A stretch of DNA of 64,000 nucleotides from Tomocerus qinae (lineage: Eukaryota; Arthropoda; Collembola; Entomobryomorpha; Tomoceridae), in contig CM034547.1 in assembly GCA_020055645.1 (NCBI GenBank), forward strand, positions 41,829,909 to 41,893,908, read 5' to 3'. The notes below the pieces were generated by a model. It did no database searches, had not been told where the DNA came from, and worked only from the letters and a program-made list of their open reading frames with translations. The first letter of the stretch is position 1. Each line of letters opens with the position of its first letter. The translations under genes were made by a program, and so were the position numbers. Shown here one piece after another: positions 4,667 to 56,142 of this stretch.

Positions 4667-4739
4667 CAAGTCATTCGGACAATAATCTGTGGAATTTGCA
4701 GTAAAAATAAGCGTTTAAATATCGCAAACGCTGTGTACA

Positions 4740-15372: not shown

Positions 15373-15648
15373 AACGTTGCTTTAAATGCTTTTAAAAAAT
15401 TTAAATGCTTTAAAACCTTTACCCTAATTACAATTATTATCCTATTTTACATTATCATTCATCTGATATGCGATTGTGGCACAGTAACTTTCACTTAGCT
15501 TATTACACATTATGTACATAGTAAATACTATTCGTATATAGTATGTCCACAATTGCCACAATGTGTGTAGGGGCAGATATTAGATATTGCATAGAAGAAT
15601 GGGTAGGTTGAAGTGACAATATTATCATTATATATTCCGTCCAATATA

Positions 15649-15835
15649 TTATCGTTCCGCTGCCACAGTTCTCTCTTTGTATTCGAAAGACAATGGGTCA
15701 TATGTTGCAATACAAAGGCTTAACTTCAGCGCAAACTTCGAGTCGAGCAAATCAACGTGGGAGGTCCATTGTAATGCAACATATGATCCATTGTCTTTCG
15801 AATACAAAGAGAGAACTGTGGCAGCGGAACCATAA
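15649..15835. mobile_element. TA-inserting foldback MITE, copy 1 (187 bp)
   Basis: It is bounded by TA on both sides, with ends TTATCGTTCCGC and GCGGAACCATAA. The arms pair over about 67 bp around a short centre containing AACGTGGGAGGTCC. Two other copies in the window (52398 and 57121) have exactly the same length and also lie between TA dinucleotides. A TA target suggests Tc1/mariner-type mobilisation. Confidence 0.92.
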
Positions 15836-16389
15836 TACCGAAACGGTACTGTACTATATCTTATTAGGATCGAAGCTTTGCTTAGTATCCTTATGAATTT
15901 GTCGCTGTCACTCTGGCGATCGTCTGGTCGTCTGGTCGTCTGGTCGTCCACTAATTTTATTGGTACTTTATTAGCACGTATATCTTTGCAACGACATAAC
16001 TTATTCCAAATCTGTTTTTTGCATATGGTAGCATATATATTCAGGATCAACCAGTTATCATTAAAATTCAAATTCGACGCATCCCCTGCTTTGTGGAAAT
16101 TATAAAAGTGCAGCAGGTGAGGCAGACAGTAATAGTACGGCAGGTGAGACAGACAGCGTATAACATAGAGGACTGTGAATGAGCTGAGCTATCTAAGAGA
16201 CTACACACCGCGCTGGTATTAACATGCTCTGAAACTGCGGGAGACAAATGCAATATAAAATAGCTTCTCTAGAGCAACGATTAGTTGAATACAATTTTCG
16301 TTTCATTGCAACAATATTGTCACTGCATTGTAACCCAAAAAGTGAAAATTGGCTAAAGAAGAGGATTTTTGTCCATTGTGATTAGTTAA

Positions 16390-21360: not shown

Positions 21361-21924
21361 TAATTTGATAGTCGAGGTCAGGTCATTAATGTAGCTCCTA
21401 CCACTTTTGGTGAAAAGTCAATAAGAGGATGTGTTTTGTTTTGCTCTCCTTCTGCCACCAGTTTGAATAAGATTGGAATAAGATAAAACCGAGGGGATCA
21501 GTGGCTGTATCCATGACCACGGGCTTCTCCCAGCCCGTGGACTGAATGCACCCAGCTAGACTTCAATCAAACAGGCTGCAGAAAAAGGGTGACTTGGCCA
21601 TTGACAACACCTTGGTGCAAATTTGCATTAGCATGTAGTGTTATTTCGAGTATTGTCGTATGTCGTATTGCACTGCTAGATCTCTTGGGACAGTAATCCG
21701 TAACCATGGGATCGAATTACTGTAGTGTGATATAAGTAATTTTATTACATAATGGAAATTCGCAGGGCAAATTGACTACACCAGCGTTGACATAGAGAAA
21801 AGTTCAATGCTCTGTCTCATGTTAGTCCATCGCTTCAATCTGTCGGATATTCATGACCTGCAAATCCGGTCAAGTATGAAGCAGTTTACATTTCAACCTT
21901 TTTCATGAAACTCTCTTTGCTATT
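21361..21924. other. Intergenic, with relative of the 28.2-kb hAT MITE
   Basis: 21490-21560 shares TCAGTGGCTGTATCCATGAC, CACGGG and ACTGAATGCACCCA with the 28155-28328 MITE. No gene seen. Confidence 0.5.
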
Positions 21925-23113
21925 TTAGCTCGCCTGAATAAGGCAGCTTATAGAACCGCACAGTCTGTCCGTCCGTAGGTTGCTGAGATACCGCGCGCTC
22001 ACTTTGTCTTCATTTTGATAGTTAAAGTGAAAAATAATCATTGAAAATTGTAATACCGTTTCCTATAGATTGTTAGCGTGATAGTATAAACTATATCATG
22101 CCGCTTCTACTAAAACTGAAATTATATAGTAAAATACCAAAAGCGGAAAATTACCTTTAAAAGTAAAATAACGAATCTGTTTCAAGTTTGTCTTGATTTT
22201 AACAGTCAATATTAATATATTTTCATTATTGACTTTGATAGTCAATATTAATATATTTTCATTATTGACTTTGATAGTCAATATTAATATATTTTCATTA
22301 TGTATTGACTTTGATAGTCAATATTAATATATTTTCTTATGCATTGATCTTGATAGTCGATATTAATATATTTTGATTTTGTGTTGATTTTGATAGTCAA
22401 TATTAATCAATTTTGATTTTCTGTTGATTTTCATAGTCAACATCAATTTTGATTTTCTGTTGATTTTCATATTCAAAAGTAATCAATTTTGATTTTCTGT
22501 TAATTTTCATATTCAAAATTAATCAATTTTGATTTTCTGTTGATTTTCATAGTCACCATTAATCAATTTTGATTTTCTGTTAATTTTCATAGTCAACATT
22601 AATCAATTTTGATTTTCTGTTGATATTCATAGTCAGCATTAATCAACTTTAATTATCTGTTGATTTTCATAGTCAACTTTAATCAATTTTGTTTTTCTGT
22701 TGATTTTCATAGTCAACATTAATCAATTTAGATTTTTTGTTGATTTTTTTCAAATAATATAGCTTCGTTTCCTTATAATATCAATGTCTGAAATTTTAAT
22801 ATGTCTCAGCTACATATATAAAGACCCAATTCTGAAAGTTTGATCAAAATCCGTACGCTCGGTTTTGTGCTACGTGCGAGTACTTTTCGTCTACCAAAAT
22901 GTGTACACGTTAACCTTTAATCAGGAGAGCTTCTGTTACGGCTTGCTGTAGGTTTTAATATGTCATAGCTACATATATAAAGACCCAATTCTGAAAGTTT
23001 GATCAAAATCCGTACGCTCGGTTTTGAGCTACGTGCGAGTACTTTTTGTCTACCAAAATGTGTACACGTTAACCTTTAATCAGGCGAGCTTCTGTTACGG
23101 CTTGCTGTAGGTT
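21925..23113 (+). mobile_element. DINE-1/Helentron-like element, copy 4
   Basis: It starts TTAGCTCGCCTGAATAAGGC, then GTCTGTCCGTCCG, and runs through an irregular 40-bp TTTTGATTTTCTGTTGATTT minisatellite (about 22180-22745). It ends TCAGGCGAGCTTCTGTTACG then GCTTGCTGTAGG. The last 160 bp are tandemly duplicated (22790-22952 and 22955-23113), so this copy has two 3' ends in a row. Confidence 0.75.
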
Positions 23114-27905: not shown

Positions 27906-28154
27906 AACCTCTATTTGGTGAAAGCAACTAACACACTAACAGAAATACAGTTAGTTGTCATAGAAGGCAGTTAAAAAAGGCCGTGGAATTTCCTTTTTAT
28001 TATCAATCCGAATCCACTTGATCTTCGAGGCACTTATACAAAATTATATTGAGTGAAAAGCATTCCGTAGTCATTAGAAACTTGGCTTCATACTGTACTG
28101 AAAGAAAGTTGTGCCATAACTTTGTTGTCATGATCCTTCGAATATGGACGAAGT

Positions 28155-28328
28155 CAGTGTGCATCGAACGTTATAGGGTGACGATAATAGAATGTTTTGC
28201 TCTTTTTCTGCAGCCAGTTTAGATAGGAAAACTGGGTGCAGGCCCCGGGGGAATCAGTGGCTGTATCCATGACCACGGGATTTTTCACAGCTAAAAGTCA
28301 ACTGAATGCACCCAAACCTTATGCACTG
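28155..28328. mobile_element. hAT-type MITE, 174 bp, upstream of basic-protein copy 1
   Basis: It is flanked by GACGAAGT on both sides (28147-28154, 28329-28336). Ends are CAGTG and CACTG. The duplicate locus at 39.3 kb has one GACGAAGT and no insert, giving an intact empty site. The insertion therefore followed the duplication, or was lost precisely from the other copy. Confidence 0.95.
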
Positions 28329-28467
28329 GACGAAGTAGTATTTCAAACAATGTTTCAAGACGAAGGATTTTCTAATAATCTACTTCATTCTCTCTTTTCG
28401 TCTCTCGAGTACGGACGACATTTTGCTCTCTGAGATTTCTATATTTTCCTGGATATTTTCTCATAAA

Positions 28468-29651
28468 ATGGTGAAAACTCGCAGTGTAAGTTTAATTTTA
28501 CTGTGTTATTTCCGTTTTCTGTGTATTTCTATTTATAAAAATCAAGTTTTTGTGCAAATTCTGATATTTTTGAATTTTTTCTTGAAGCAAACGAAAAAGG
28601 AAGAACTTGCATTGGATAATGCAAATGCGGCCAATTCAGCCGGAGCCCCGGAAAATAATGGGGATGCAGCAGCAGTTGCAGAAGGTAAGAAAATACACGA
28701 TAACTGATATTCAATTTCAATGAATATAGAGTACCTACATAGCAAAATGACACAAAGGGGCGCCCCTGTCTCATGCTCCAGCAATCCAATTTTCTCTTTT
28801 CTCTACCCTAAGTTCCTTTGTTTGATGGTTACCCTTAGTAATATTCAACAATTTACTTACACCTTTGTTATATTATATTTTCAGCTGATTCTGCGTCAAC
28901 TGGCAAAGTAAAACCTGGTCGGAAGTCCAACAATGCATCAAAAAGTAAGAAGACGCAACCTTCATCGAAACGACGGAGATCGAAGTCAAGCTCCGCTGCC
29001 AGCCGAAAACGGAGAAGCAAGTACTCTGGTGCTGCCAACAAAAGACGTCGTTCAAAATACAGCTCCGCTGCCAGCCGAAAACGGAGAAGCAAGTACTCAG
29101 GTGCTGCCTCCAAAAGACGTCGTTCAAAATACAGTTCCGCTGCCAGCCGAAAACGGAGAAGCAAGTACTCAGGTGCTGCCTCCAAAAGACGTCGTTCAAA
29201 ATACAGTTCCGCTGCCAGCCGAAAACGGAGAAGCAAGTACTCTGGTGCTGCCCACAAAAGACGTCGTTCGAAATCAAGCTCCGCTGCCAGCCGAAAACGG
29301 AGAAGCAAGTACTCAGGTGCTGCCTCCAAAAGACGTCGTTCAAAATACAGCTCCGCTGCCAGCCGAAAACGGAGAAGCAAGTACTCAGGTGCTGCCTCCA
29401 AAAGACGTCGTTCAAAATACAGTTCCGCTGCCAGCCGAAAACGGAGGGGCAAGAAGGCGGGTGCATCAGCTTCTTCGGAGAAAAGACGACGAGGAAAGGC
29501 GAGTTCCGCTGCTAGTCGAAAACGGAGGGGCAAGAAGGCGGGTGCATCAGCTTCTTCGGAGAAAAGACGACGAGGAAAAGCAAGTTCCGCTGCTAGTCGA
29601 CGCAGGGCGAAAAGTGGCGCATCACCTGATGAGAACTCCGAATCCAAGTGA
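28468..29651 (+). CDS. Arg/Lys/Ser-rich repeat protein, sperm nuclear basic protein-like, copy 1
   Basis: Three exons, 28468-28485, 28588-28684 and 28885-29651, join in frame through GTAAGT and GTAAGA donors to give 293 residues. The N-terminal 50 or so residues (MVKTRSQTKKEE...) are acidic and Ala/Asn-rich. The rest is a 72-nt (24-residue) repeat in which SAASRKRRSKYS alternates with SGAASKRRRSKYS, seven copies. Two longer RKRRGKKAGASASSEKRRR units and a tail ending NSESK follow. Composition and design resemble protamine-like or histone H1-like chromatin proteins of sperm; this is inference from composition. Because the repeat length is a multiple of three, other frames and the antisense strand are also open; splicing selects this frame. 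It has a duplicate at 39425. Confidence 0.78.
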
Positions 29652-30085
29652 AGATACAAACAGTGAAATCTCATGCAACTAATTTGATGTACTTATTTAC
29701 TTAAATTATGATTATAATTATCAATCCAAAAGTGTGCGTTTAAAAAGTGAAAAGTAATGATCTATTGAACAAAAGTGAAATTATTTTGAATACAAAAGTT
29801 TTATGTATAATATCGTTGTGTAAACAATGGTGTGATGAAGTATTATCCGTAGGAATAAATATGATTAATCGTAATCGTGATTATGATACTTGTAAGTACT
29901 TGAGGATTTTATTTGGTACATCTGCAGGAGTATCTGTTGGAAATTAAAATCAGAAAAGTTGTAACTGTCTTCTATGATAGCATATCTTAGCTTATTGAGA
30001 TAAAACGGGGATATATTCCCAGAAAATACAATTTCATTAATCTAAAAACAGTCCGTAGAAAATAATTGAAATATAGATTTTCTAT

Positions 30086-30971
30086 TTAGTTTGAAAAATT
30101 TACAACTTTTAGAAAACCTACGTTCTTTTTCATAATCCTCCATAACAAGGGCGACCGCAGCACCCTATGTGTAATTCCAACTGTCTGCATCCTGCTGTAA
30201 GCTGCAAAAGGGTCCCAAAACTAAAGACATCAACATCCGGTTCAAATCTGAACTTTGGTATTAACCATCTTCTATATATTTATTTACTGAACGCGTCCAG
30301 TTCGTCGTAATTTACGAGATAGATTTTAGATTCTCCTTCCAATAACCGATGCATTTCATTTTATAATCAGGATCACCTATATGTACAGATTTCAACGCTT
30401 CATATGCAATCTTCTGTAACAATTTCCCACAAAAAGTCCCTCCAGATCCTCAATGAGGCTAAAAAATGTGTACAAAAGCCTGACTCAATTAAGTTACCCC
30501 AAAGTCTGGCTTTTCAAAGCCTTGAGACTTCATCCAGAATGTTTTTAGACTTCGACTTATCTCTGACTCACTTCTAACTCGATTTAAGATTTAAGTTAGT
30601 CCGGAACTTTAACTAGCCAGTTATTCCTTTCGTTTCTCTTGGGTATAGATTCTAGGCAAGACAAGGACTGGATAGCCAAATGGAAATGGACCTACAAGTA
30701 CAATGCTACAATTACAACACAACGATATAATATGTATTTTATTTACGATTTTAGGCATAGGGTTTCAAAATTCATTCAAGTGATCGATATTTTAATGTGC
30801 AAATTGGATTTTTATTGGACAATATGATTTATTGAAGGAGGACTGCCAACTGTCGAATGATAGCAGATTATTTCAGCGGATTGCAACTTCTTCCCATGAT
30901 GTAGAAAGCCTAGAGAGAACTGACTACGACCCGTGGAATTGTTATTGAATTTCAAACAAATGTTACACATT
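30086..30971. other. Intergenic, no gene recognised
   Basis: It holds the 3' flank of the duplicated block and then unique sequence. A 62-codon ORF at 30639 is not convincing. Confidence 0.45.
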
Positions 30972-31755
30972 TTACAGATAAAAGAAAGATTTATTGCTTT
31001 CTTGTCCATAGCGGTCGATTGCAGAAATTGCATACGCCGCACCTTTTTCTAGTGAAATTTCGCCGGTATTGACACTGTAAAGGTTTAAAATATTCCAACC
31101 ATCTGCAGACCTTTTATAAATGACGACCTTGTACAGCCTGTCATCATCAGAAAACCAACTGACTCCTGTTCCCTGTTTAGATTTGATAATAGTCAATTGC
31201 TTAGGAGGGGATTTAACATTTGCAGCATCAGCAAGCCAGTGAAAAGTGGGCTGTAGTGCCGGATAAAAATACACCCTGTCTCTGAAATGGTTGATAGAAT
31301 CTGGGTTGTTGAAGATTTTAGCGCTAAATTGGACATTTCCCCATGACCCTCTTTCTCGGTTATCCTTGTCTCTTGATATGACGACTTGATTGGTAATTTC
31401 CGATATATCCCATCCCTCCAACACACGGCTCAGGAAATTTCCCGCGTAAACATGTCGATTCATTGTATTTTGTTCCACCCACCAATTCAAAAGGACTGGA
31501 TAGCTCTGCTGAGGAGGATCAATTTTCCAGTATAATTGTGGCTGAAGAACATCAATCTACAAAGCCAAAATATAAAAGTTTGACCAAAATATTATTTTGA
31601 CAGTAAAATTTTGTGCGATTAAATGCAATATAATAATTAATTAACAACCCATCCGCGATTAAGCCACAGTTTAGGATCAGAGTAGATAGCGCTGTATTGA
31701 TCAAGTCCTTGAATACTGCAGGGCATTCCCTCTTCGTGGCACGGGCGATAAATTC
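30972..31755 (-). CDS. GHL10-type glycosyl hydrolase-like protein, 3' exons only
   Basis: Two minus-strand exons, 31649-31755 and 30972-31556, join in frame. The encoded part has the conserved end of the GHL10/DUF187 barrel: QGLDQYSAIYSDPKLWLNRG, then LQPQLYWKIDPPQQSYP and LNWWVEQ, followed by HVYAGNF and a C-terminal beta-rich domain ending SFFYL. Known members (YngK, YddW type) are mainly bacterial cell-wall-associated predicted glycosidases. Here the gene has introns and eukaryotic splice sites. The first two thirds of the barrel are missing: upstream lie a DINE-like element and CIMIP1-like exons. It may be a broken duplicate. A second copy starts at 62067. Confidence 0.72.
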
Positions 31756-31800
31756 CTAAAATCAAAGGAGGATTTTAATGTTTAATTAATTTGGGCTAGA

Positions 31801-32890
31801 TTTAGCTCGCCTAAGGAAGCGAGGTTATAGAGCCGCACAGTCCGTCCGTCCGTTCGCCAACGCTGTAACTTTTGAACGTAACGACGGAAGTTAACCAAAC
31901 TTAGCAAAAACAATGCCTACGGACCAGTGACGAACCCTATTCATTTTGGTTCAAATCGGTCTATAGGTTGCTGAGATGCCGCGCGCTCACTTTGTCTTCA
32001 TTTTGATAGTCAAAATTAAAAATTGGCATTAAATGGACATTAAAAGTTTAATTGTGTTTCCTAAGAATTGTTAGGAATAGTATATAATATTTAACTCCGC
32101 TTCGACCAAATTTAATATTTTATAATAAAGTAAATATAACAGGAAAATAACTATTATATAGGACGGAAATCAATCTATTTCGCATTTATATGCAATTGAT
32201 AGTCAACTTTATATTTTTCGAGTTACTTTTCATTGTGATAGTTAATATCAACCAATTTTGATTTTCTTTTGATTTTTATACTCAATATTAATTAATTTTT
32301 AATTTCTGTTGATTTTGATACTCATTGTTAATCACTTTTGATTTTCTGACATTACTGATGATTTTGATACTCAATATTAATCAGTTTGGTAATTATTTTG
32401 ATACTTAATATTAATCAATTTGGGATTTCTGTTTATTTTGATACTCACTGTTAATCAATTTGGGATTTTTGTTAATTTATTTGGTACTCAATATTGATCT
32501 ATTTTTGATTTTCTGCTGATTTTGGTATTCAATATTGATCTATTTTTGATTTTCTGTTGAATTTGATAGCCAATATTAATCAATTTTGATTTTCTGTTAA
32601 TTGTAATGTTCAATAATTATTAATTTTGATTTTCTGTTGATTTTGATAATAAATATAAATCGATTTTGATTTTCTGTTGATTTTGATAATAAATATAAAT
32701 CGATTTTGATTTTCTGTTGATTTTGATAATCAATATAAATCTAAATCGATTTTGATTTTCTGTTGATTTAATACTCAATATAAATCAATTATTTATTTTT
32801 ATTGTGAATTATGAATAAATATTAATCTAATTTGGATTAGTGTTCACTTTAATAATCAAAATCAATTTATTTCCTCTATTTATATGTTTG
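31801..32890 (+). mobile_element. DINE-1/Helentron-like element, copy 5, truncated
   Basis: It starts TTTAGCTCGCCTAAGGAAGC, then GTCCGTCCGTCCG, then a 40-bp TTTTGATTTTCTGTTGATTT minisatellite. The other end (AAGCCGTAACAG) is absent. It occupies the place of exons 4-5 of CIMIP1-like copy A and separates that copy from the GHL10 exons. Confidence 0.7.
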
Positions 32891-32899
32891 AATTTTTAC

Positions 32900-33332
32900 C
32901 ATTCTTTGCCAAGCGATCCATTCCACGGAACGATAACTGGGCTTTCGCATTGCCCGATTGATTCCACTGCAAACCCATTTCCTACAGTAACAAAAACAAA
33001 AATACTTTTAGGATTTATTCCTTTTTTCAGTTTACAACATGCAGCTGACACAGCCACTTGGCCAAGTTTATTATGGTTAGGTTATTTTAATTATTTAAAG
33101 TGGACAAACTGATGTTCTTTCATCCATGGACCATTTCCCCAACGGTTCATCCAGTTTTTTCGCCCCTCATATTCTTTCTGCACTTTCCATTCAATGATAT
33201 TGGCATCCAACCATCCTTCAAACAAATTATTATTTTATGATACTGTTTTGATATTTTCTCATTCATCTCTTAAATAATTTGAGTATTTTACTTACCAAGG
33301 TATTTTCTGTCTTCTGTTTTTCCACTAGTCAT
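32900..33332 (-). pseudogene. CIMIP1-like gene, copy A, exons 1-3 only
   Basis: Minus-strand exons 33296-33332, 33110-33215 and 32900-32981 match exons 1-3 of the intact copy at 41333, with the same splice sites. Exons 4 and 5 are missing; a DINE-like element starts right after exon 3. It is inverted relative to the intact copy. Transcripts would lack the conserved C-terminal half. Confidence 0.8.
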
Positions 33333-33912
33333 GATCAATAATGGATTACTTACTTAATGTCCTTGAATCAGTTGAATCTACAAAATCATCCAGATGTCAA
33401 TTTTGCGAAATGTTTCATGCACCTGACTGTATTGATCAGCAGGAGTACTAGTCTGGGGTCGGAGTCGGAATTTAGCACCTCACTCCAGCACCTCACTCCA
33501 TTTTCCCCGCAACAACCTCTACAACCGAATTGATACCTTTGTTACAATTATCGCTAAGAGATATTTTTCAAATAATAACCGCAGTGAAAATCGCTTCTGA
33601 TTGGTCGATGCATTTTTGAAATTGACCAATCAGAGCACAGAATTCCATAGCAAAAGAACCCTATCGGATTTAAACACGTTTCTGGCCCCCGGGCAACCTG
33701 AGGTCATGGAAATTGACCCATCCTGGCCTGGCCCCATCTCTCAGTGTGGAAAATAAAAATGTGACACAGTTGTCACTTGACATTACATGCCATGGTTACT
33801 CATGGCAGTACCTCGGTTGTACTAAGGTCAACTTTTAGATTATTTTGAGACTCCGGGTTAGGAGTAACCCAAGATTGGCTGTAGTCATAGTCACTGTCTA
33901 ACTAATACTGCA
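33333..33912. other. Intergenic, shared with the 39-41 kb locus in inverse
   Basis: 33333-33450 matches 41210-41332 inverted, and 33565-33650 matches 39065-39165 inverted. It is the upstream part of the CIMIP1-like duplicate. No gene. Confidence 0.7.
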
Positions 33913-34106
33913 TCAAGGTGAGGTAAATTTCTATAGTGACGCTTGTTTTGCTTATAGACAGGTGGTGAAAGGACCTTTATATCGGTGGACAAACTCTGGG
34001 ACAAAAATTCACATTTTTGTCCCAGCAGTCCCGTCCCCATCTTAGATTCCTTGCATGCGTATTTCACATATTAACAGGCGTCTATTGCTCATTGCTGGAA
34101 TTGGCG

Positions 34107-34364
34107 ATGGTTAGGCGATGTGCTGTCAAGTGTTGCAAAAATTTAAAAGGTAGCCCTTCTGCTACAGTATTTTATTTTACAAGCGTACAGGAAGAATGCA
34201 TGGTTGGATTTTGTGCTTTGTTGCGGATCGAGTTTTTAAAGCGAACATCGATCAAGCGTCAGCGATCAGTTAAAGCGTCTGTAAATTGCATTTTATCTTT
34301 ACATGATTTTATTATTCCGAGTTTGCGGTGGCTCCCGGCTAAAAAACTTCCTCAGTCAAATATC
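34107..34364 (+). pseudogene. Decayed THAP-domain fragment
   Basis: It starts MVRRCAVKCCKNLKGSP, a typical THAP N-terminus with C-x3/4-C spacing. The frame then decays: a shifted frame continues with GWILCF and FKANIDQ. HDFIIPSL near the end looks like the remains of the AVPTIF box. No transposase body follows. Confidence 0.55.
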
Positions 34365-34837
34365 TAGGCTTTTCAGTTAATGGATTTCAGATTGAACTTC
34401 CTCAAGAAGTTCGCTGCGCTTAATAGGTTTACATGCGGTCAGGTCAATGAGACTATGAGGATCATGAACATTAAGCAACTTCCCATTGCCCCGGAGCTGA
34501 GGCTGGAGTATGGACTCCGGAGATTTAGCACCTGCCCCGCTGCCCAGTGAGAATCGAGTTGGAGTGGAGTGGAGTATGGACGAGGACAAGTAGGGAACGA
34601 GAATTTCATTATTTATTTAATTATTTCTGAGACCCATTGCAGTTAAGCTCTCAGAATTTCCACCTCTAGGTATATTATTTAGAATCGTACTTTAGCATTA
34701 GGGACTTGAAATTGTCAAAAAACGAGGTTAAAGTCTCTTTTCATTGGTGGATGCATTTTGCCTTTAACCAATGGGATTGCAGATTTCCATGATTGCAATT
34801 GTAGCTTGGTCCATTGCATAGAATGCATCGGCTGTCA

Positions 34838-35170
34838 GGGACCGATTCCTACGAGAGAATTACTCCTAAAAGACTACTCCTATAAAGGATTCCTAAAAAG
34901 TACTTCCTCCAATGCAATAACTGATTGTTTTTAATTATTTTAGAGTTGCCCTTTATACTACATCTAATCGTGACTATTCGATTGGTTTACAAATCAGTTT
35001 AATTTTCAGTATCTTTAATGTTAGTTTAGTTAACTGTTAAGACAATCTTAAGCTGTTATTGCATGATGAAGCTGCACTGGACATAGTATTAGCTGGCTTT
35101 AGGAGTCCTTTAGGAGTAAAGTCTTTTATGAGTGATTCCCTCGTAGGAGTCGTTCCATGTAACCGATTGC
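34838..35170. repeat. Palindromic element inside the P-like relic
   Basis: ACCGATTCCTACGAGAGAAT with ACTCCTAAAAGACT (34845-34905) is mirrored at 35085-35170. Arms of about 70 bp with several mismatches. Confidence 0.7.
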
Positions 35171-35667
35171 ATCGTGAGTTTAATTTGTTCAAAATTTTAC
35201 GTTAATCTCGATACATAGGTATTAAGTACTTCAAATTAATTTGGAAACTAAATGACTATCAATTTGTATGGTATCGCTATGATCATTCGAATGAAAATGA
35301 GTTCCTAACTGAATTTGGATATTGGTACCATGAGCTGGGACGATCCGTCCCAGAGTTTGTCCGTATCATTTCAATGGTAATATAGAGTCCTTTCCACACC
35401 TGTGTATTTACGATAAATGTATTGCTATAGAAATTTACCTCACCTTGTACTGCATGAATTTTGGGAGTAACCAATATGCATACTATGCCCTCAGCATATC
35501 ATCAAGGCATCGTATAATAGTAAAATGTACTAAAAGATAGTCTAACCCTGATAGAAGTGTGATTATGATTTATGAACTACTGCAGCGACTTGTGTATGGC
35601 GAGTTACGGAATGACTGATTGAAATCTGACTGAACTGAATACTCTGCATGGTTATTACAATTACTAT

Positions 35668-35891
35668 CAGTTCAAAACTTCTTTGAGTCCATTCATTAGA
35701 AAGAGTGGATTATGTGACAAAATACAATACGCTTATCTCGGACGAAAAGTTGGAGCCGAGGCTTAACGTAGGAGGTCCAACTATACAATTGGACCTACCA
35801 AATTGATCCTCGACTCCAACTTTTCGTCGAGACAAGCATATTGCATTGTGCCACATGATCCATCATCAGTCCAAGAAGTTTTGGACTGAAT
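35668..35891. mobile_element. Foldback MITE related to the TA-inserting family
   Basis: Inverted arms start CAGTTCAAAACTTCTTTGAG and end CTTGGACTGAA-like. The centre has ACGTAGGAGGTCCAACTATA, resembling the GTGGGAGGTCCA centre of the 187-bp MITEs. Arms are diverged by perhaps a fifth. Confidence 0.7.
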
Positions 35892-35991
35892 AATAAAAGG
35901 ACAAACAAACCTGTGGTTAATTGTGTTCTAACTTCATTTATTCCATAAATGTTAAAATATTGCATTTCGCATGAAAGTTGAGCTTAACTGA

Positions 35992-36371
35992 AATCTTTTC
36001 TCGATACAGTAGTATATAGTAATGCAGAAACTGAAACAATACAAAAATGGCTAGGGGGAATTCAAAAATTGTGATATTACAAAAAATAATAATTTAACAC
36101 CTTAGTGTATAGTACATTACTGTATTGTGCCAAAGAGAAATGGGAAAAATTGAAAAATGACTAGGGAGCATTCATAAACTATGTAATTGGAAAAATATAC
36201 TATCTTAGCACTCGCATGTATAGTATAATACATATCATTAAAAACAATTAAAAACGAATGAAAACTGGTTAGGGATCATTCATAAAATGTGTAATAGTAC
36301 AAAATTATTATTTTAACACTTCCATAAACATTGCACTGCTGTAGTGTATCAAATCACTGATAACTATTAAA
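35992..36371 (-). repeat. Degenerate satellite monomers, inverted orientation
   Basis: Three diverged units of about 110 bp contain TAGTACATTACTGTA, the inverse of the main array. The DINE-like copy 6 is inserted next, and one more degenerate unit continues to about 37420. Confidence 0.7.
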
Positions 36372-37325
36372 AACCTACAGCAAGCCGTAACAGAAGCTCG
36401 CCTGAGTAAAGGTGGCCGTTTGCACATTTTTGGCATATTATCAATTATGGAAATAAATATGATTTTGATTATTAAAGTGAACCTTAATTCAAATTAGGTT
36501 AGTATTATTAATAATCAAAAATAAAAACCAACAACAAATCAAAATAGATTGATGTTGATTTTAATACTCAGTGTGAATTAATTTTGAATTTATGTTTATT
36601 TTGATACTCACTGATTTTAAATTGATTCACACTGAGTATTAAAATCAACAGAAAATCAAAATTGATTGTTATTGATTATCAAAATCCACAGAAAATCAAA
36701 ATTTATTAATATTGATTATCAAAATCCATAGAAAATCAAAATTAATTAATATTGATAATCAAAATCCACAGAAAATCAAAATTAATTAATATTTATTATC
36801 AAAATCTACAGGAAATTAAAATTAATTAATATTGATTATCAAAATCCACAGAAAACCAAAATTAGTTAATACTGAGTATTTAAATTAACAGAAAATCAAA
36901 GTTGATTAATACAAATTATGAAGTACATTAATAATAACTATGAAACACAAATACAATGAAAAAAGATTGATTTTTAACCCATAACCAGTTTTCACTGGTT
37001 TTATTGGCTTTACTATAAAATTTCAATGTCGATAGAAGCGGTATGATATATTTTATACCATCCCCTAACAATTTATAGGAAACGCAATTGAACTTTTAAG
37101 GCCCATTTTTCGCTTTGACTATGAAAATGAAGACAAAGTGAGCGCGCGGTAGCTCAGCAACCTATGGACCGATTTACCCCAAAATCAATAGGGATCGTCA
37201 CCAGTCCATAGGCATTGTTTTTGCCAAGTTTGGTCAACTTCCGTCTTTGCGTTCCAAAGTTATCGTGGGTACGGACGTACGGACGGACTGTGCGATTCTA
37301 TAAGCTGCCTTATTCAGGCGAGCTA
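36372..37325 (-). mobile_element. DINE-1/Helentron-like element, copy 6
   Basis: It has both ends: ACCTACAGCAAGCCGTAACA plus AGCTCGCCTGA at the left and TTCAGGCGAGCT at the right. The (GGAC)n run sits before the right end and a short, irregular 40-bp minisatellite is internal. It splits the degenerate satellite units. Confidence 0.78.
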
Positions 37326-37429
37326 AAACTGGTTAGGAAGCATTCATAAATTGTGTAATGGTACAAACTTACTATCTTTGAAAGCATTGAAAACAATCGA
37401 AAATAAAATGTACTAAACATGCAAGTGCT

Positions 37430-38840
37430 AAAATAGTGATTTTGTACTATTACCCAATTTATGAATGTCCAGTGGCCAGTTTTCAATAGTTTTCAGTGAT
37501 TTGATACACTACAGTAATGTACTATACATTTATCTGCTAAAAAAGTAATTTTTTGTAGTTACACAATATATGAATGTCCCTTGACCAGTTTTCAATCGTT
37601 TTCAGTGATTTAATACACTACAGTAATGTACTATACATTTATCTGCTGATAAAGTAATTTTGTACTATTACACAATTTATAACTGTCCCTTGACCAGTCT
37701 TCAATTTTTTCAGTGATTTAATACACGGCAGTAATGTACTATACATTTATCTGCTAAAAAAGTAATTTTTTGTAGTTACACAATATATGAATGTCCCTTG
37801 ACCAGTCTTCAATCGTTTTCAGTGATTTAATACACTACAGTAATGTACTATACATTTATCTGCTAAAAAAGTAATTTTTTGTAGTTACACAATATATGAA
37901 TGTCCCTTGACCAGTTTTCAATCGTTTTCAGTGATTTAATACACTACAGTAATGTACTATACATTTATCTGCTGATAAAGTAATTTTGTACTATTACACA
38001 ATTTATAACTGTCCCTTGACCAGTCTTCAATTTTTTCAGTGATTTAATACACGGCAGTAATGTACTATACATTTATCTGCTAAAAAAGTAATTTTTTGTA
38101 GTTACACAATATATGAATGTCCCTTGACCAGTCTTCAATCGTTTTCAGTGATTTAATACACTACAGTAATGTACTATACATTTATCTGCTAAAAAAGTAA
38201 TTTTTTGTAGTTACACAATATATGAATGTCCCTTGACCAGTTTTCAATCGTTTTCAGTGATTTAATACACTACAGTAATGTACTATACATTTATCTGCTG
38301 ATAAAGTAATTTTGTACTATTACACAATTTATAACTGTCCCTTGACCAGTCTTCAATTTTTTCAGTGATTTAATACACGGCAGTAATGTACTATACATTT
38401 ATCTGCTAAAAAAGTAATTTTTTGTAGTTACACAATATATGAATGTCCCTTGACCAGTCTTCAATCGTTTTCAGTGATTTAATACACTACAGTAATGTAC
38501 TATACATTTATCTGCTAAAAAAGTAATTTTTTGTAGTTACACAATATATGAATGTCCCTTGACCAGTTTTCAATCGTTTTCAGTGATTTAATACACTACA
38601 GTAATGTACTATACATTTATCTGCTGATAAAGTAATTTTGTACTATTACACAATTTATAACTGTCCCTTGACCAGTCTTCAATTTTTTCAGTGATTTAAT
38701 ACACTGCAGTAATGTACTATACATTTATCTGCTAAAAAAGTAATTTTTTGTAGTTATTCAATATATGAATGTCCCTTGACCAGTCTTCAATCGTTTTCAG
38801 TGATTTAATACACTACAGTAATGTACTATACATTTATCTA
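37430..38840 (+). repeat. Satellite with about 324-bp higher-order repeat
   Basis: Monomers of about 101-110 bp share CAGTAATGTACTATACATTT and GTCCCTTGACCAGT. One monomer type (CTGCTGATAAAG, TTGTACTATTACAC) returns near 37643, 37968, 38291 and 38617, every third unit, so the real repeat is a trimer of about 324 bp in about four copies. Confidence 0.92.
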
Positions 38841-39182
38841 CATTTACTACACTGCGTATCCAGACTGCTTAGTGAAGTAATAATAAATTGTAACACATGC
38901 AAGCAGTTGCTCTGTTCAGCAAGTAAGCATCATAGAGTTGAGTACTGTGTATTAGTTTGCGATTATGCTAAAAGTGTTAGTCCGTATTTTCTTATCCTAT
39001 CACAAGTCTAGTTCAAAGTTCAGTGTTGAAATAAATATTTCCCTTGGGAATGATTTATGAAAATCATAAAATTTTGCTATGGAATTCTGTGCTCTGATGG
39101 TCAATTTCAAAAGTGCATCGACCAATCAGAAGCGATTTTCACTGAGGTTATTATTTGAAAAATATCTGCGATAATTTCAACA
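38841..39182. other. Intergenic, boundary of the duplicated block
   Basis: 39065-39165 is the inverse of 33565-33650. An 80-codon ORF from 38769 crosses into the satellite and is not credible. Confidence 0.5.
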
Positions 39183-41177
39183 GTATATTGAGTAAAAAGC
39201 ATTCCGTAGTCATTAGAAACTTGGCTTCATACTGTACTGAAAGAAAGTTGTGCCATAACTTTGTTGTCATGATCCTTCGAATATGGACGAAGTAGTATTT
39301 CAAACAATGTTTCAAGACGAAGGATTTTCTAATAATCTACTTCATTCTCTCTTTTCGTCTCTCGAGTACGGACGACATTTTGCTCTCTGAGATTTCTATA
39401 TTTTCCTGGATATTTTCTCATAAAATGGTGAAAACTCGCAGTGTAAGTTTAATTTTACTGTGTTATTTCCGTTTTCTGTGTATTTCTATTTATAAAAATC
39501 AAGTTTTTGTGCAAATTCTGATATTTTTGAATTTTTTCTTGAAGCAAACGAAAAAGGAAGAACTTGCATTGGATAATGCAAATGCGGCCAATTCAGCCGG
39601 AGCCCCGGAAAATAATGGGGATGCAGCAGCAGTTGCAGAAGGTAAGAAAATACACGATAACTGATATTCAATTTCAATGAATATAGAGTACCTACATAGC
39701 AAAATGACACAAAGGGGCGCCCCTGTCTCATGCTCCAGCAATCCAATTTTCTCTTTTCTCTACCCTAAGTTCCTTTGTTTGATGGTTACCCTTAGTAATA
39801 TTCAACAATTTACTTACACCTTTGTTATATTATATTTTCAGCTGATTCTGCGTCAACTGGCAAAGTAAAACCTGGTCGGAAGTCCAACAATGCATCAAAA
39901 AGTAAGAAGACGCAACCTTCATCGAAACGACGGAGATCGAAGTCAAGCTCCGCTGCCAGCCGAAAACGGAGAAGCAAGTACTCTGGTGCTGCCAACAAAA
40001 GACGTCGTTCAAAATACAGCTCCGCTGCCAGCCGAAAACGGAGAAGCAAGTACTCAGGTGCTGCCTCCAAAAGACGTCGTTCAAAATACAGTTCCGCTGC
40101 CAGCCGAAAACGGAGAAGCAAGTACTCAGGTGCTGCCTCCAAAAGACGTCGTTCAAAATACAGTTCCGCTGCCAGCCGAAAACGGAGAAGCAAGTACTCT
40201 GGTGCTGCCCACAAAAGACGTCGTTCGAAATCAAGCTCCGCTGCCAGCCGAAAACGGAGAAGCAAGTACTCAGGTGCTGCCTCCAAAAGACGTCGTTCAA
40301 AATACAGCTCCGCTGCCAGCCGAAAACGGAGAAGCAAGTACTCAGGTGCTGCCTCCAAAAGACGTCGTTCAAAATACAGTTCCGCTGCCAGCCGAAAACG
40401 GAGAAGCAAGTACTCTGGTGCTGCCCACAAAAGACGTCGTTCGAAATCAAGCTCCGCTGCCAGCCGAAAACGGAGAAGCAAGTACTCAGGTGCTGCCTCC
40501 AAAAGACGTCGTTCAAAATACAGCTCCGCTGCCAGCCGAAAACGGAGAAGCAAGTACTCAGGTGCTGCCTCCAAAAGACGTCGTTCAAAATACAGCTCCG
40601 CTGCCAGCCGAAAACGGAGGGGCAAGAAGGCGGGTTCATCAGCTTCTTCGGAGAAAAGACGACGAGGAAAAGCAAGTTCCGCTGCTAGTCGACGCAGGGC
40701 GAAAAGTGGCGCATCACCTGATGAGAACTCCGAATCCAAGTGAAGATACAAACAGTGAAATCTCATGCAACTAATTTGATATACTTATTTACTTAAATTA
40801 TGATTATAATTATCAATCCAAAAGTGTGCGTTTAAAAAGTGAAAAGTAATGATCTATTGAACAAAAGTGAAATTATTTTGAATACAAAAGGTTTATGTAT
40901 AATATCGTTGTGTAAACAATGGTGTGATGAAGTATTATCCGTAGGAATAAATATGATTAATCGTAATCGTGATTATGATACTTGTAAGTACTTGAGGAAT
41001 TTATTTGGTACATCTGCATGAGTATCTGTTGGAAATTAAAATCAGAAAAGTTGTAACTGTCTTCTATGATAGAAATCTTAGCTTATTGAGATAAAACGGG
41101 GATATAATCCCAGAAAATACAATTTTATTAATCTAAAAACAGTCCGTAGAAAATAATTGAAATATAGATTTTCTATT
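39183..41177 (+). repeat. Segmental duplication, copy 2 (partner 28046-30085)
   Basis: It lacks the hAT MITE found in copy 1 but has more coding repeats. Beyond 41177 the sequence switches to the CIMIP1-like locus. Confidence 0.95.
39425..40743 (+). CDS. Arg/Lys/Ser-rich repeat protein, sperm nuclear basic protein-like, copy 2
   Basis: Exons 39425-39442, 39545-39641 and 39842-40743 give 338 residues, with the same splice sites as copy 1. There are ten 24-residue RKRRSKYS-type repeats against seven in copy 1, and only one of the longer RKRRGKKAG units against two. The repeats are nearly identical at nucleotide level, so the count changes by whole units without loss of frame. The acidic N-terminal region is the same. 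No MITE in the promoter. The chromatin role is inferred from composition; expression may differ from copy 1. Confidence 0.78.
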
Positions 41178-41332
41178 TAGTTGTACTATTTAGTGTTAGT
41201 GTTAGTGAGTACTATTAGTACTCCTGCTGATCAATACAGTCAGGTGCATGAAACATTTCGCAAAATTGACATCTGGATGATTTTGTAGATTCAACTGATT
41301 CAAGGACATTAGTAAGTAATCCATTATTGATC

Positions 41333-42245
41333 ATGACTAGTGGAAAAACAGAAGACAGAAAATACCTTGGTAAGTAAAATACTCAAATTATTTAAGAGAT
41401 GAATGAGAAAATATCAAAACAGTATCATAAAATAATAATTTGTTTGAAGGATGGTTGGATGCCAATATCATTGAATGGAAAGTGCAGAAAGAATATGAGG
41501 GGCGAAAAAACTGGATGAACCGTTGGGGAAATGGTCCATGGATGAAAGAACATCAGTTTGTCCACTTTAAATAATTAAAATAACCTAACCACAATAAACT
41601 TGGCCAAGTGGCTGTGTCAGCTGCATGTTGTAAACTGAAAAAAGGAATAAATCCTAAAAGTATTTTTGTTTTTGTTACTGTAGGAAATGGGTTTGCAGTG
41701 GAATCAATCGGGCAATGCGAAAGCCCAGTTATCGTTCCGTGGAATGGATCGCTTGGCAAAGAATGGTAAAAATTCAAACGATAACTGCCCATACTGAGGC
41801 TATTACTTAACTATTTTTGATTAAAAATGATAAATGTTTGATAATGTAAAACAGAAATTAGTTATACTCTTTGAGTCTTATTATAAAACCGTCAAATGTT
41901 AAATATAACTTACATTTAATATTTACAGTGTGATATCCCCAGGAGGGAGAGTGCAATACACGGAAGGAAGTTCTAATGGAACCCAAAAAATGCCAATGTT
42001 GCCGTCCTTGTCGTTGGCCTATTACAACTGCGGGAGAGGTAAAAAGAATTTTAAAAGATTTTTTTATGCAAACCCACTGTAAACCAAATTTCCACTATAA
42101 TGTGTTTTTTGTGCTTTTTTAGGTTGGTTGGCTAGGTCAACATCGTTGCTGCCAATTGGAGATTTACCCAAATGACTTCATGAAAAAGCCTCCATTGCCT
42201 CGCTATTCTGTCAAAATATCAAGCTTCCTGGCCAATAGCCAATAA
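41333..42245 (+). CDS. Intact CIMIP1 (C20orf85)-like axonemal protein gene, five exons
   Basis: Exons 41333-41369, 41450-41555, 41684-41765, 41943-42038 and 42123-42245 join in one open frame of 147 residues, close to the 137 of human C20orf85. Residues 14-39 (WLDANIIEWKVQKEYEGRKN, then WMNRWG) and 101-110 (PITTAGEVGW) fit the two conserved blocks of that family, a ciliary/sperm-tail microtubule inner protein. A cysteine knot-like C-x-C-C-x2-C lies at 92-98. The exon 2 donor (CAGTTTGTC) and exon 4 acceptor (CCCCAG) are the only choices that keep frame. Family assignment is from remembered motif pattern and is moderate; the exon structure, shared by three copies, is firm. Confidence 0.62.
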
Positions 42246-42998
42246 CCTAAGACCTCAACCTATGTGTATAAATATAGTATTTGTAACAATTTGTAAACAC
42301 CTATACAATATTAAAACTTTACGCAAGATATTTTAAATATCAATCTATAATTTCTGTACGTGGTAAATATTTCCAGAAGTTGATAATCGTAAAGTGGATT
42401 AGAGAAACTCATATTATCACCATTTGGGCTTACGAACAAATAAATAGGTTATAAAAATGCAAAACTAAACATCTTTCAATAATTCTGCACCCATATCTTA
42501 TCGTTGATTGTCTCATGTCTTGATAATAATGTAAATCAACAAATCTAATAATTTAGATCAATTGAATGATGTTTTGATTTCCAACGAAAATATTAAATAA
42601 AAAGCACAAAAGATTTTTCGAAATGAGATTTTTTGCAAAGACAATAATGGTAACGGACCCTCGCAAAGGTGAAGGAGTATGTTCCGTGTTCCTGAATCCT
42701 GTCTCGTCCTAATTTCCTCGTCAGAATTAGCCGCTATCCCTTAAAAACATTACGATTTCATTCACAATCACAAAGTAGTCTTGGCCTGACATGTGCTTTC
42801 ATTGTTACGTGATTCTTGATATTGGTGAGCCGGTGAACAATATTTTGTGATGGATTTTAGGCTGTCGTCAGCTGTTCATTTGAATACTGAATAAATAAAA
42901 TACTGAAAGAACTGAAAAACATATGTAATACAGGTAATAATTAGTTATTTTATACTTGATACTAGAAGAAAAGACAAAATTATTAAATAAAAATTGTC
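42246..42998. other. Intergenic, 3' flank of the CIMIP1-like gene
   Basis: Up to about 42630 it matches 61628-62015 next to copy C. After that it is unique and upstream of the Myb gene. An AATAAA lies near 42595. Confidence 0.5.
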
Positions 42999-46200: not shown

Positions 46201-49200
46201 CTAAGTATGAAATGGAGTACAAAATACCAAAGGGACTCGCGAAGCAGTTAGCAAATTCGTTTTTGTCTTACCAGGATTTTAACATCATAGCCGCAAAACT
46301 AAATGTGGCTTTTCCACAAATGAATTCAGACATAGCTCGAGTACTCTATTCCAGAACGTTAAATCCGATGCTGAGAAAAAACAATTTTACAGCTATTGAA
46401 GATGCTATTTTATTGGTGGTTATGGAACTGAAAAAAGAAGAAATACTCGTTAATAAAGCTTACGACAATTTTTATCATTGTATTTCGGAATACATGCCAT
46501 GGCGTTTTACGGATCTTTTGCGTGAACGATTTGAAAGTTTATTCCAGTCAACATTCTATCCTTTTACAATGTAAGTATGCGATGTAATGGAAGTAGCATG
46601 TTTTGAGATTTCCGTAAACTAATTAATTTAGTTATCATTTTGTGTTTCAACTGTGTTTTTTAGTGAAGAAGACCGACTTTTGATAGCTGCTGTAAATCTC
46701 TTGGGCCGAGAGTGGGGAAAAATTTCTGAACTCTTCACTTCAAATAAAACAAGGAGGCAATGTGCATCCCGTTACAATCTCATTACAAATTGGTCTGAAG
46801 CGCAGTTGGAGCATGTAAATATATTTTTGTTTCCTAAATCTTTTCTGCCTTTCTTTTACTCCATGTCTATAATAATATTAATAATAATAGTAAAAGTACG
46901 CTTTAGTCTTTGTAGTCTATGTTTAGAATGACGCCGTTTATTTTAATATTTTAGTATCACCTGTTTGATTCTAAACCATACAAATTGACTTTAACCAGCC
47001 CTTTGATGCAAGCTCTGTACAAAATTAGTCAACTTTTATTGGAATGGGAAAGACGTGATAAAATTTCCTCATCTCAATTACCACGGCTTGAACCACCTAC
47101 AGAAAGGGAATTACACTTGTACATCAGATCATTTCCTCGTTCAGTTGTACAGAAAACATTTGACAAACTTATTGATCACTGTCATCACAATTTGGAATAT
47201 CGACCGCCTCCTCCAAGTCGATTGAATTTCGACCGTAGTAAGTTTTTTCAATTTTAAAAATTTCTATGAACAATGATGCTATGTTTATTTGTCGGGAAAG
47301 AGTATTCATTATTATTTAGGACAAAGCTAACTTTTTATTTTCCTTTTTTAGGAAAATTCAACAGAGTGCTGCCTGTCAGCTGGGCTTCTGCTTTGCATTT
47401 GCGACAAATCGCTCTGAAGCCTATAGAATGTGTTGAAAATCCTACAGATTTTGAATTGTCTATTTATGCTCATTATAACAAATATGGACTTGGGATGAAA
47501 CCGAAAACCAGTATTATTCGGTATGGAGTTCCATCTGCTGAACAGCTTGTCGAATATCCAGAAATTTCTAGAATAGTTGTTAATGACCAGATTCAACCAA
47601 GCCTTAACCCTGAGTCAACTCCATCTAGTCCTGTAAATGTTAAACTGGAAAAGTAAGTGCAATATTTATTGTTTTTTATAATATTATTATGGTTTTTAGT
47701 GAACCGTTGAACTGAGGTGTACTATCATATTCAGCTAACTTTTCCAGTTCATTTTTAATCCTACTAATTGGTCTTTTGTTCTTTGATATGGCGAAGCAAT
47801 GAGCTGCGAAGAAATCGTGATTGAGAATCAATAGACCACCTACCAAGCTAGTCACGATTCCTTCGCAGCTAACTGCTTCACCAGCCAAGAACAAAACATA
47901 TATTAATGGGATTAAAAATGTGCTGGAAAAGTTAGCCGAATAGGGTAATATCCTCAGTGTAGAAATGTAGGTAGTAGGTAGCCATTTTTAAAAGGGTGCT
48001 ATTTAATGTGTCCCTGAAAAAATTTAAAAGTCCCTGAAAAATAATTGAAACGGTCAATTGCTGACTATGTCCCTTTGTTTTATTAACGGGTCCCTATGGA
48101 AATATTTAAAAAGTCCCTACAAATGCTTAAATGGTACATGGACCAATTAGTGTGGTGTTGTCAACGTCATTTTTAGTATAAGACTACAAGGAAATGAATA
48201 TTATGTTAAGATTGAGAACTTGGAGGTACAACATAGATTGTATTAATTTCTAATTACCCTTGCCTTAGACTGTCAGACGATTAGAGGTGCACAATCAGAT
48301 AAGCTGAAATAAACGACCTAGTTCACTATGTCTAGAATCTCACAGTTGTCTCCAACTCACTGCACAATTAAGATATTGACGCGTCTTCTGTTCTATTACT
48401 TCCCTACTAACATCATATAGCTAGGAAACATAACCATGAGCGGTTCTATAAGCTTGTCAGGCGAGTTAAAAGATTAGATTGGACTTTTTTGAAAAAATAC
48501 GAGACCTAAGAAGAATCTAATAGAGACCTTTTTACTTTATGGACTCAAAGATCTGTGAATTTAAGCAGCAGTGTGGAAGTGTGCTACTGTTAGTCCAAAC
48601 AGAGTAAAATGTCCGTGTAAGCCAAATTTGGTATCCAATTAAAGCAGAAGTTGTATATTTTAAAAACGCGCCTTTAAATACACAGGGCATACCGGACCCA
48701 GATTTTGAGGGACGTAACCTAATTAAAACAATAACATTAAGAGGTATTTGCGTAACCTCTGCCTTACTTCAACCCAAAATTTGATTTTCGATGAAGGGAA
48801 TGTGTTTTTATTTTTTTCCAACAAGTGTTCACTTCCACCTTTAAAAAAATTATTTTAAGCGAAAGAAGGAATTACAAAACTTCTTAAAAACATTTCTAGT
48901 AATGACATTTCAGAGTTAACGACTTTCATTATTTTAAGTAAGTAAGATAACTATTTGTCCATGTACCATTTCAACATTTGCAGGGACTTTTTAAATAATT
49001 CCATAGGGACCCATTAATAAAACGATAGGACCAAATCAGCAATTGACGTTTCAATTATTTTCAGGGACTTTTAAATTTTTTCAGGGACCCATTAAATATA
49101 CCCCTTTTCAAAAGCTCCGAAACGTAAAATAAATGTCGATTATTATATTTAGAGTTCCGAAATTCGAGCGTGATGAAGAGGAAGAAGAATTTTGTTGCAA

Positions 49201-51704: not shown

Positions 51705-52397
51705 CTATTATTGATATAATATGTTAATGTTTACTCATGCGATCTATCTAGTTCTCCTACTGCTGCTATTGCATCGTTAATTTCAGATCTCACTATTATA
51801 ATTTCTAATATACGCATACGAATTATTTATTCAGAAATGTAGGATAAAATGCAGTAGTAAGTACATCTGTATTGTAATACGAGTGCCTAGTATTTATTTA
51901 TTTTAGTATCACTCTCATATATACTCTCCATTATCTTGTTGCTTCCCAAGCCATAAATTCAAAAGATGAGGGAAAATTAAGGAAATTTTTTTCCGGCCTG
52001 TACGACCACTATACACACACATTCATAAGACTCGTTTATTCGTAAATCTATTATGGGATTTTTATTTGCATAAGGCATAAGGAAAATTAATTAAACAGCT
52101 AATAACAATAAAACGTGCTGTTTGGATATGCCATGCATAGCAATATAGCACAACTGGATTGTGGATATACCGAAAATTACTAGTAATGCTAAATCTTACC
52201 CACGGTATTTACTAAGACCTGGAAAACCGGTAATTTTTAGCTCTTTTCTTATTCAGCTCTAGTCTGAGGGAATAATGTTTACGTTGTGCTGATTAATTAC
52301 GTCCAGGAACTATCCCATAAAAAGATCGCATGAAAGATTGCTAATAAATTTCTCATAAACACTTGAACCTAGAATCTCACCGGAACCTTTCCTTGTA
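51705..52397. other. Intergenic, no gene recognised
   Basis: Unique AT-rich sequence with no long ORF. Confidence 0.5.
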
Positions 52398-52584
52398 TTA
52401 TCGTTCCGCTGCCACAGTTCTCTCTTTGTATTCGAAAGACAATGGATCATATGTTGCAATACAAAGGCTTAACGTCAGCTCAAACTTCGAGTCGAGCAAA
52501 TCAACGTGGGAGGTCCATTGTAATGCAACATATGATCCATTGTCTTTCGAATACAAAGAGAGAACTGTGGCAGCGGAACCATAA
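52398..52584. mobile_element. TA-inserting foldback MITE, copy 2 (187 bp)
   Basis: Same ends and length as the copy at 15649, flanked by TA (52396-52397, 52585-52586). A few internal substitutions, such as AACGTCAGCTC for AACTTCAGCGC. Confidence 0.92.
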
Positions 52585-53349
52585 TACTATCATAATTTCC
52601 TTTTTTCAGTAAATATTAGCTCTCCGGATTATTGCTTAGAACGTTACATACAAGGACAAGCTACACCTATACACAATTCTTAAATATCTGTATTGTTTAT
52701 ACATAACAGTTTTTATTTCTATGCATTGCGTGTATAGACTATACACTTACACTACAGAGATAGGAGTATTAATATTATAATTTATTAGTTAGCTATTCCT
52801 TATAATAATACGCACTAATGATGATGACTGAATATATACAGTCAAAGCTTGGTAGCGGACAATAAAATTAGTTTACGTCTTTTCTACCTTTTTTTGTGGT
52901 TTTCTTCATTTCTTCCACCCACATGGGAGAAATGGGAGAAACTACCACATTTCTGAATTTATTTGGATATATTTTATCCTTTCTGCCACATCACATTTCT
53001 AACTTTAGTAATATTCCATTTTAGACAAAAGCTTCGAGATGCTAGTTTTGTATTAATGCAACGTTTTTGATATTTGCCACTATATGGGTTTAAAAATAAA
53101 ATTCTTTGTGCGAAATATTATTTACTTTACTTTTAGAACCAGTTTCCCTTCAGATAGCTTTGACTGTATTTCCTAATTAACAAAGTACAGCAATGCAACG
53201 ATAACGTTCAGAGCCGTAAGCAATGCATGAATGTTACGTGACGAGATGAAGTTAGTCTATGGTATTTATTCATATGGAAAAGATCGAGCTAAGCAATATA
53301 GAGCACGCAGTTTATCTTTCGACACAATCAGCGATCCGTGTCAGGGGCA
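52585..53349. other. Upstream region of the carboxylesterase
   Basis: No gene. Repeated TGGGAGAAATGGGAGAAAC is near 52925. The sequence TATGGAAAAGATCGAGC precedes a possible TCAG initiator near 53328, but no strong TATA box was identified. Confidence 0.4.

Positions 53350-56142
<2,793 letters not shown>

What the first reader, a model, noticed from the sequence alone, without database searches (positions are those of the whole stretch)
28046..41177. Recently duplicated pair of spliced, highly basic repeat proteins that differ by whole repeat units
Two loci 11 kb apart share introns, promoter and flanks almost base for base, yet one has seven and the other ten 24-residue RKRRSKYS-type repeats, and two versus one longer C-terminal units. 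The reading frame is set by two short 5' exons that simple ORF calling misses, and the frame and antisense shadows look like larger genes. The composition suggests a sperm chromatin protein (inference). Fast repeat turnover in such a gene would be of interest for sperm competition or meiotic drive.
Basis: partly seen in the sequence, partly recalled or inferred. Interest (0 to 1): 0.82.

Follow-up and report, generated by a model that had tools for sequence, protein, structure and literature searches.

The report
Duplicated protamine-like repeat gene pair
Two nearly identical copies of a probably spliced gene for a very basic, repeat-built protein sit 11 kb apart and differ by whole in-frame repeat blocks; the protein is probably a DNA-packing protein, perhaps of sperm, but its expression could not be tested.

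Summary
Two three-exon models (A 28468-29651, 293 aa; B 39425-40743, 338 aa) have identical exons 1-2 and introns and encode repeat proteins with 35-36% Lys+Arg. C-terminal 27-aa units number 2 and 1. The basic unit is 12 aa, doubled to 24. B carries one extra three-unit block (216 bp).
The reading frame is well supported: the two 36-bp halves of a unit match at 18 of 36 bases yet keep 9 of 12 residues in this frame only (0 of 20,000 simulations as good).
A has a 174-bp hAT-like insert with an 8-bp target duplication about 140 bp before its ATG. Divergence is mosaic, which suggests gene conversion. Intron 1 is 102 bp, open and in frame, so its retention would add a hydrophobic N-terminus. Copy B lies among rearranged repeats and looks like the derived copy.
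No Pfam domain (copy A scanned) and no relative in the collections searched. A protamine-like nuclear protein is the best reading; the sperm role and drive are untested inference.

The parts
28047..30091 (+). Copy A duplicated segment (contains a 174-bp insert absent from B)
   Evidence: Alignment to B 39186-41182
28147..28154 (.). Target-site duplication GACGAAGT, left
   Evidence: Exact 8-bp repeat flanking the insert; single in B
28155..28328 (.). 174-bp insert with hAT-like ends (CAGTG...CACTG; hAT label recalled), about 140 bp upstream of the ATG of A
   Evidence: a 73% identical stretch lies at 21437-21554
28329..28336 (.). Target-site duplication GACGAAGT, right
28468..28485 (+). Copy A exon 1, coding part (MVKTRS)
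   Evidence: ATG in context AAAATGG; donor AGT/GTAAGT
28486..28587 (+). Copy A intron 1, 102 bp, 22.5% GC, in frame and without stop
   Evidence: acceptor GAAG/C is weak by recalled consensus
28588..28684 (+). Copy A exon 2 (part of the mixed-charge head)
28685..28884 (+). Copy A intron 2, 200 bp; read-through meets a stop after 7 codons
28885..29651 (+). Copy A exon 3 to stop: rest of head, 12-aa half, six 24-aa units, two 27-aa units, tail
39186..41182 (+). Copy B duplicated segment
39425..39442 (+). Copy B exon 1, coding part
39545..39641 (+). Copy B exon 2
39842..40743 (+). Copy B exon 3 to stop: rest of head, 12-aa half, nine 24-aa units, one 27-aa unit, tail
39072..39182 (+). Left flank of B, matches 33655-33540 (- strand), 92%
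41216..41779 (+). Right flank of B, matches 33450-32886 (- strand), 99.6%

Best explanation
Each locus is a three-exon gene for an intracellular, intrinsically disordered, highly basic protein. A mixed-charge head of about 66 residues (11 Lys/Arg, 7 Asp/Glu) is followed by a tail built from 12-residue boxes, each holding a four-residue Lys/Arg cluster, SKYS or a relative, and a small-residue linker. The tail most likely binds DNA by charge, as protamine-like proteins do, with the head as a possible removable precursor part and the serines and tyrosines as possible phosphorylation sites. About 2 kb carrying the gene with its upstream region and 3' end was copied (B is probably the derived copy). 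The 5' part was probably homogenised later by gene conversion or exchange, while unequal exchange in the array changed the number of whole units and so the net charge (+91 versus +111). Shown: sequence anatomy, frame signal, copy and unit differences, insert. Inferred: splicing, DNA binding, nuclear location, sperm role, conversion, direction of copying.
For: Frame: unit halves share 18/36 bases but 9/12 residues, with 6 of 9 differing codons synonymous, in this frame only; the other five frames keep 3-4 of 12 with simulated P 0.26-0.54 (one consensus unit). No in-frame start in exon 3; intron 2 read-through stops after 7 codons. GC is 48-53% in exons 2-3 and 22-34% in the introns. AATAAA/ATTAAA motifs lie about 203 and 292 bp after both stops. 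Composition: A 103 K/R of 293, B 122 of 338, 11-12 acidic, 6 hydrophobic residues (V, I, L, M, F, W, C), no Cys. Mosaic: 1 substitution in 1,218 bp of the 5' block versus 7 in 439 bp after the stop, Fisher P 0.0005; 5' non-coding positions only, 1/541 versus 7/439, P 0.026. Insect SNBPs are described as appearing to come from precursors by extensive cleavage, with less charged disordered regions ahead of the basic part in the bee (PMC12216123).
Against: No transcript, tissue or localisation data. No relative found in viral contigs or genome contigs, collections that are not animal collections. No known DNA-binding domain (copy A only). Arg is about 19-20%, below an arginine-rich protamine. At 293-338 aa it is longer than Nv-PL1 of Nasonia, 216 aa. 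The acceptor of intron 1 (AAG) and the exon base before its donor (T) are uncommon by recalled consensus. Intron 1 has no stop in frame. The mosaic test used limits seen in the data, so its P values are lenient.
Confidence: 0.55

Rival explanations
1. A nuclear or nucleolar basic repeat protein with a somatic or general role (chromatin, ribosome or RNA related), not a sperm protein.
For: Composition alone does not separate these; [quoted passage not shown] The ten PDB sequence matches, none significant, were to ribosomal protein uL24/L26, best E 0.13.
Against: No RNA-binding domain. Young duplication and unit-number change fit a fast-evolving gene better (inference).
Confidence: 0.28
2. Intron 1 is retained: the protein gains a 34-residue hydrophobic N-terminus and is a membrane or secreted precursor whose RKRR/KRRR boxes are furin-type cleavage sites, releasing repeated short peptides such as SKYSGAAS.
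For: Intron 1 is 102 bp, in frame and without stop (7.4% of 5,000 dinucleotide shuffles have no stop, before the one-in-three chance of frame). Maximum 19-residue hydropathy is 1.69 when retained versus -0.20 when spliced. 8 R-X-[KR]-R sites in A.
Against: Intron 1 is 22.5% GC and 53% T, unlike exons 2-3. The donor has GTAAGT and the acceptor a long T tract. In the 27-aa units the basic boxes are kept and most of the would-be peptide changes. An Arg interrupts the hydrophobic stretch.
Confidence: 0.08
3. One or both copies are not expressed, or the pair is an assembly artefact (two alleles placed in a row).
For: Near identity of the copies.
Against: Homology stops sharply on both sides and the flanks differ, which two misplaced alleles would not be expected to show. 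7 substitutions and a one-base gap in the tail, an insert with target duplication and unit-count differences separate them. Both frames are intact.
Confidence: 0.09

Closest known systems
Insect protamine-like SNBPs of the histone H1 type (Apis Am-PL1, Nasonia Nv-PL1/Nv-PL2; PMC13148410, PMC12216123)
   Same: Basic, disordered Lys/Arg-rich tail behind a head that is thought to be cut off
   Different: Those have an N-terminal winged-helix domain and the two wasp genes are single copy; this one has no such domain, is built of 12/24-aa repeats and is duplicated
Drosophila HMG-box SNBPs (ProtA/B, Mst77F, tHMG; PMC9917458)
   Same: Gene copy number changes quickly
   Different: No HMG box here; sex linkage unknown
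Arginine-rich protamines (e.g. honey bee P1/P2)
   Same: Very high calculated pI (Biopython's ceiling of 12 is reached), Arg clusters, no hydrophobic core
   Different: Arg about 19-20%, Lys 16%, much longer, strongly periodic
Multi-copy peptide precursors with furin-type sites (recalled class)
   Same: Short repeats separated by RKRR/KRRR
   Different: No signal peptide unless intron 1 is kept; the basic boxes rather than the peptides are conserved between unit types

Membership tests
H1-derived insect protamine-like protein | Winged-helix domain in the N-terminal half | tested here: not met
   0 Pfam families for whole copy A (E up to 0.1) and for its exon 3 (E up to 1); 6 hydrophobic residues in 293. 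Copy B was not scanned; its units are the same kinds
HMG-box SNBP (Drosophila type) | HMG box | tested here: not met
   No Pfam match (copy A)
Protamine (P type) | Very high arginine content | tested here: not met
   56 Arg of 293 and 68 of 338
SNBP, protamine-like in the broad sense | Rich in both Lys and Arg, roughly 6-40 kDa | tested here: met
   35-36% K+R overall, about 41% in the tail; 31.9 and 37.2 kDa; mass range from a passage of PMC11607694
SNBP, protamine-like in the broad sense | Expressed in the testis and present in sperm chromatin | not testable with these tools
   No expression data; host genome not held
Secreted multi-copy peptide precursor | N-terminal signal peptide | tested here: inconclusive
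   No hydrophobic stretch in the spliced model; one appears only if intron 1 is retained (hydropathy only, no signal-peptide program was run)
SR splicing factor | RNA recognition motif plus RS domain | tested here: not met
   No RRM in the Pfam scans (copy A)

The most novel reading that the evidence does not exclude
A protamine-like sperm protein class of independent origin, made of 12-residue boxes without winged helix or HMG box, whose total charge is tuned by gain and loss of 216-bp blocks (three 24-aa units) between paralogs that keep exchanging sequence; copy B would be a recent dispersed copy, as in sex-chromosome conflict over SNBP genes in flies.
Probability: 0.2. Interest if true: 0.68.

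Novelty: new variant of a known kind. Interest (0 to 1): 0.42.

Why it matters
Insect sperm chromatin proteins are poorly catalogued because such sequences are hard to find and annotate (PMC12216123). If this pair is of that kind, it gives a case where charge and length change by whole repeat blocks between paralogs, testable by long reads and testis RNA. If it is not, it is still a clear example of a gene that ORF callers replace by shadows.

Tried and rejected
Relatives of copy A were sought and not found: viral contigs (24 pattern matches, 0 confirmed), genome contigs (216 pattern matches, 0 confirmed), Pfam, PDB sequences (best E 0.13). These collections are not animal genome collections, so this is weak evidence of absence. 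Four motif strings (RKRRSKYS, KRRRSKYS, RKRRSKY, KRRRSKY) occur in 0 papers of the library. Searches for insect or hemipteran SNBPs and for repeat or length change in them (one search returned 0 papers) gave the papers cited; I saw no match to this protein in what I read. Rfam and tRNA scans gave nothing and did not help name the host. An 11-kb tandem unit was rejected: only 2 kb is shared. A gene in a shadow frame was rejected by the frame test, which used one consensus unit only. Two outputs are not used: most of the amino-acid percentages printed (scaling slip; counts are used) and the Fisher value (unequal lengths from an off-by-nine join; redone). A structure prediction was not run.

Full report
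What is there. Two loci, A and B, share about 2 kb (A 28047-30091, B 39186-41182). Each reads as an ATG exon (18 coding bases), 102-bp intron, 97-bp exon, 200-bp intron, and a long third exon with the stop. The exon-3 frame holds no ATG, GTG, TTG or CTG, and intron 2 read-through stops after seven codons, so the protein needs the upstream exons. The listed ORFs in other frames and on the other strand look like shadows.

Repeat anatomy. By the residue at position 12 A reads N-S-S-H-S-S and B reads N-S-S-H-S-S-H-S-S, so B differs by one three-unit block of 216 bp; its last unit also has one synonymous difference from the last unit of the earlier block. The single 27-aa unit of B has one Ala to Ser change.

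Frame test. The two 36-bp halves of the consensus unit differ at 18 of 36 bases. In the proposed frame 9 of 12 residues are kept and 6 of 9 differing codons are synonymous, including serine codons of different sets (AGC and TCA); 0 of 20,000 random mutants of the same distance did as well. In the other five frames 3-4 of 12 are kept, P 0.26-0.54. This is the best evidence that the RKRR frame has been translated over a long time.

Copy history. The copies are identical over 1,110 bp from 28337 to 29446, across 5' flank, exons, introns and the first six units. The 5' block as a whole has 1 substitution in 1,218 bp; the tail after the stop has 7 in 439 bp plus a one-base gap (P 0.0005; 5' non-coding positions only, 1 in 541 against 7 in 439, P 0.026). 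The limits were chosen after seeing the data, so this is suggestive. Gene conversion or exchange in the 5' part after an older duplication explains it simply. A has a 174-bp insert with an 8-bp target duplication and hAT-like ends about 140 bp before the ATG; the hAT label rests on recalled features. B lacks it, so the insert probably came after the duplication, and after any conversion that covered the site. The sequence on both sides of B matches, in reverse, one stretch at 32.9-33.7 kb (left 92% over 116 aligned positions, right 99.6% over 565), where 89 bp stand in place of about 2 kb. B is therefore probably the derived copy, although the unequal identities leave other histories open.

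Intron 1. It is in frame, has no stop (7.4% of dinucleotide shuffles do as well) and would code for a hydrophobic stretch. It has intron-like composition (22.5% GC, 53% T, against 48-53% GC in exons 2-3), a GTAAGT donor and a T-rich tract, but an AAG acceptor. I take it to be an intron; this is the weakest joint of the gene model.

Function. A has 103 Lys/Arg of 293 and 12 acidic residues, net +91; B has 122 of 338 and 11 acidic, net +111; each has six hydrophobic residues (V, I, L, M, F, W, C) and no Cys. A folded domain with a hydrophobic core is unlikely in the spliced protein and none is matched. Such a chain should bind nucleic acid by charge. The plan (mixed-charge head, basic tail) resembles insect SNBP precursors as described in PMC12216123 and PMC13148410, but the class-defining domains are missing and sperm expression is unknown. 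Fly SNBP genes amplify mostly on sex chromosomes (PMC9917458, passages); nothing here tests that for this pair, and the two wasp genes are single copy (PMC13148410), so fast copying is not a rule for insect SNBPs.

Host. No whole genome is held. P-element-like transposases, carboxylesterase and Myb-like exons point to an animal, and I guess an insect; that is inference.

Verdict.

Noticed in passing
30975-31556 (-): 194-aa open frame between the two copies that weakly matches Cwp19 in the PDB (5oq2, E 0.0033, residues 1-91), a bacterial glycoside hydrolase by recall; possible horizontally acquired fragment. No Pfam match and no confirmed relative in genome contigs (26 pattern matches).
   Followed up: partly
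4719-6690 and 9071-12851 (+): Two or more P-element-like transposase remnants with THAP and TNP-like domains.
   Followed up: partly
2488-3827, 22189-22747, 32232-32830, 36619-36911: Related 40-bp AT-rich satellite arrays in four regions, on both strands.
   Followed up: no
37407-38839: 109-bp array with a 326-bp higher-order unit ending about 350 bp before copy B.
   Followed up: no
96-383 and 1413-1700: 288-bp inverted repeats, 99.3% identical, bounding about 1.6 kb: a possible mobile element.
   Followed up: no
15647-15838, 52396-52587, 57119-57310: 192-bp repeat present three times at 97.9-99.5% identity, open in several frames.
   Followed up: no
41508-41964 / 56185-56642; 41997-42631 / 61378-62013; 31518-31804 / 62018-62303 (last pair inverted): Dispersed repeats, about 98% identical, near copy B and elsewhere.
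   Followed up: partly
53302-53619 and 55491-55781 (+); 46632-46928 (+): Carboxylesterase exons (E 2.4e-10; the second piece E 0.015, below Pfam's cut-off) and a Myb-domain exon (E 5.6e-10).
   Followed up: no
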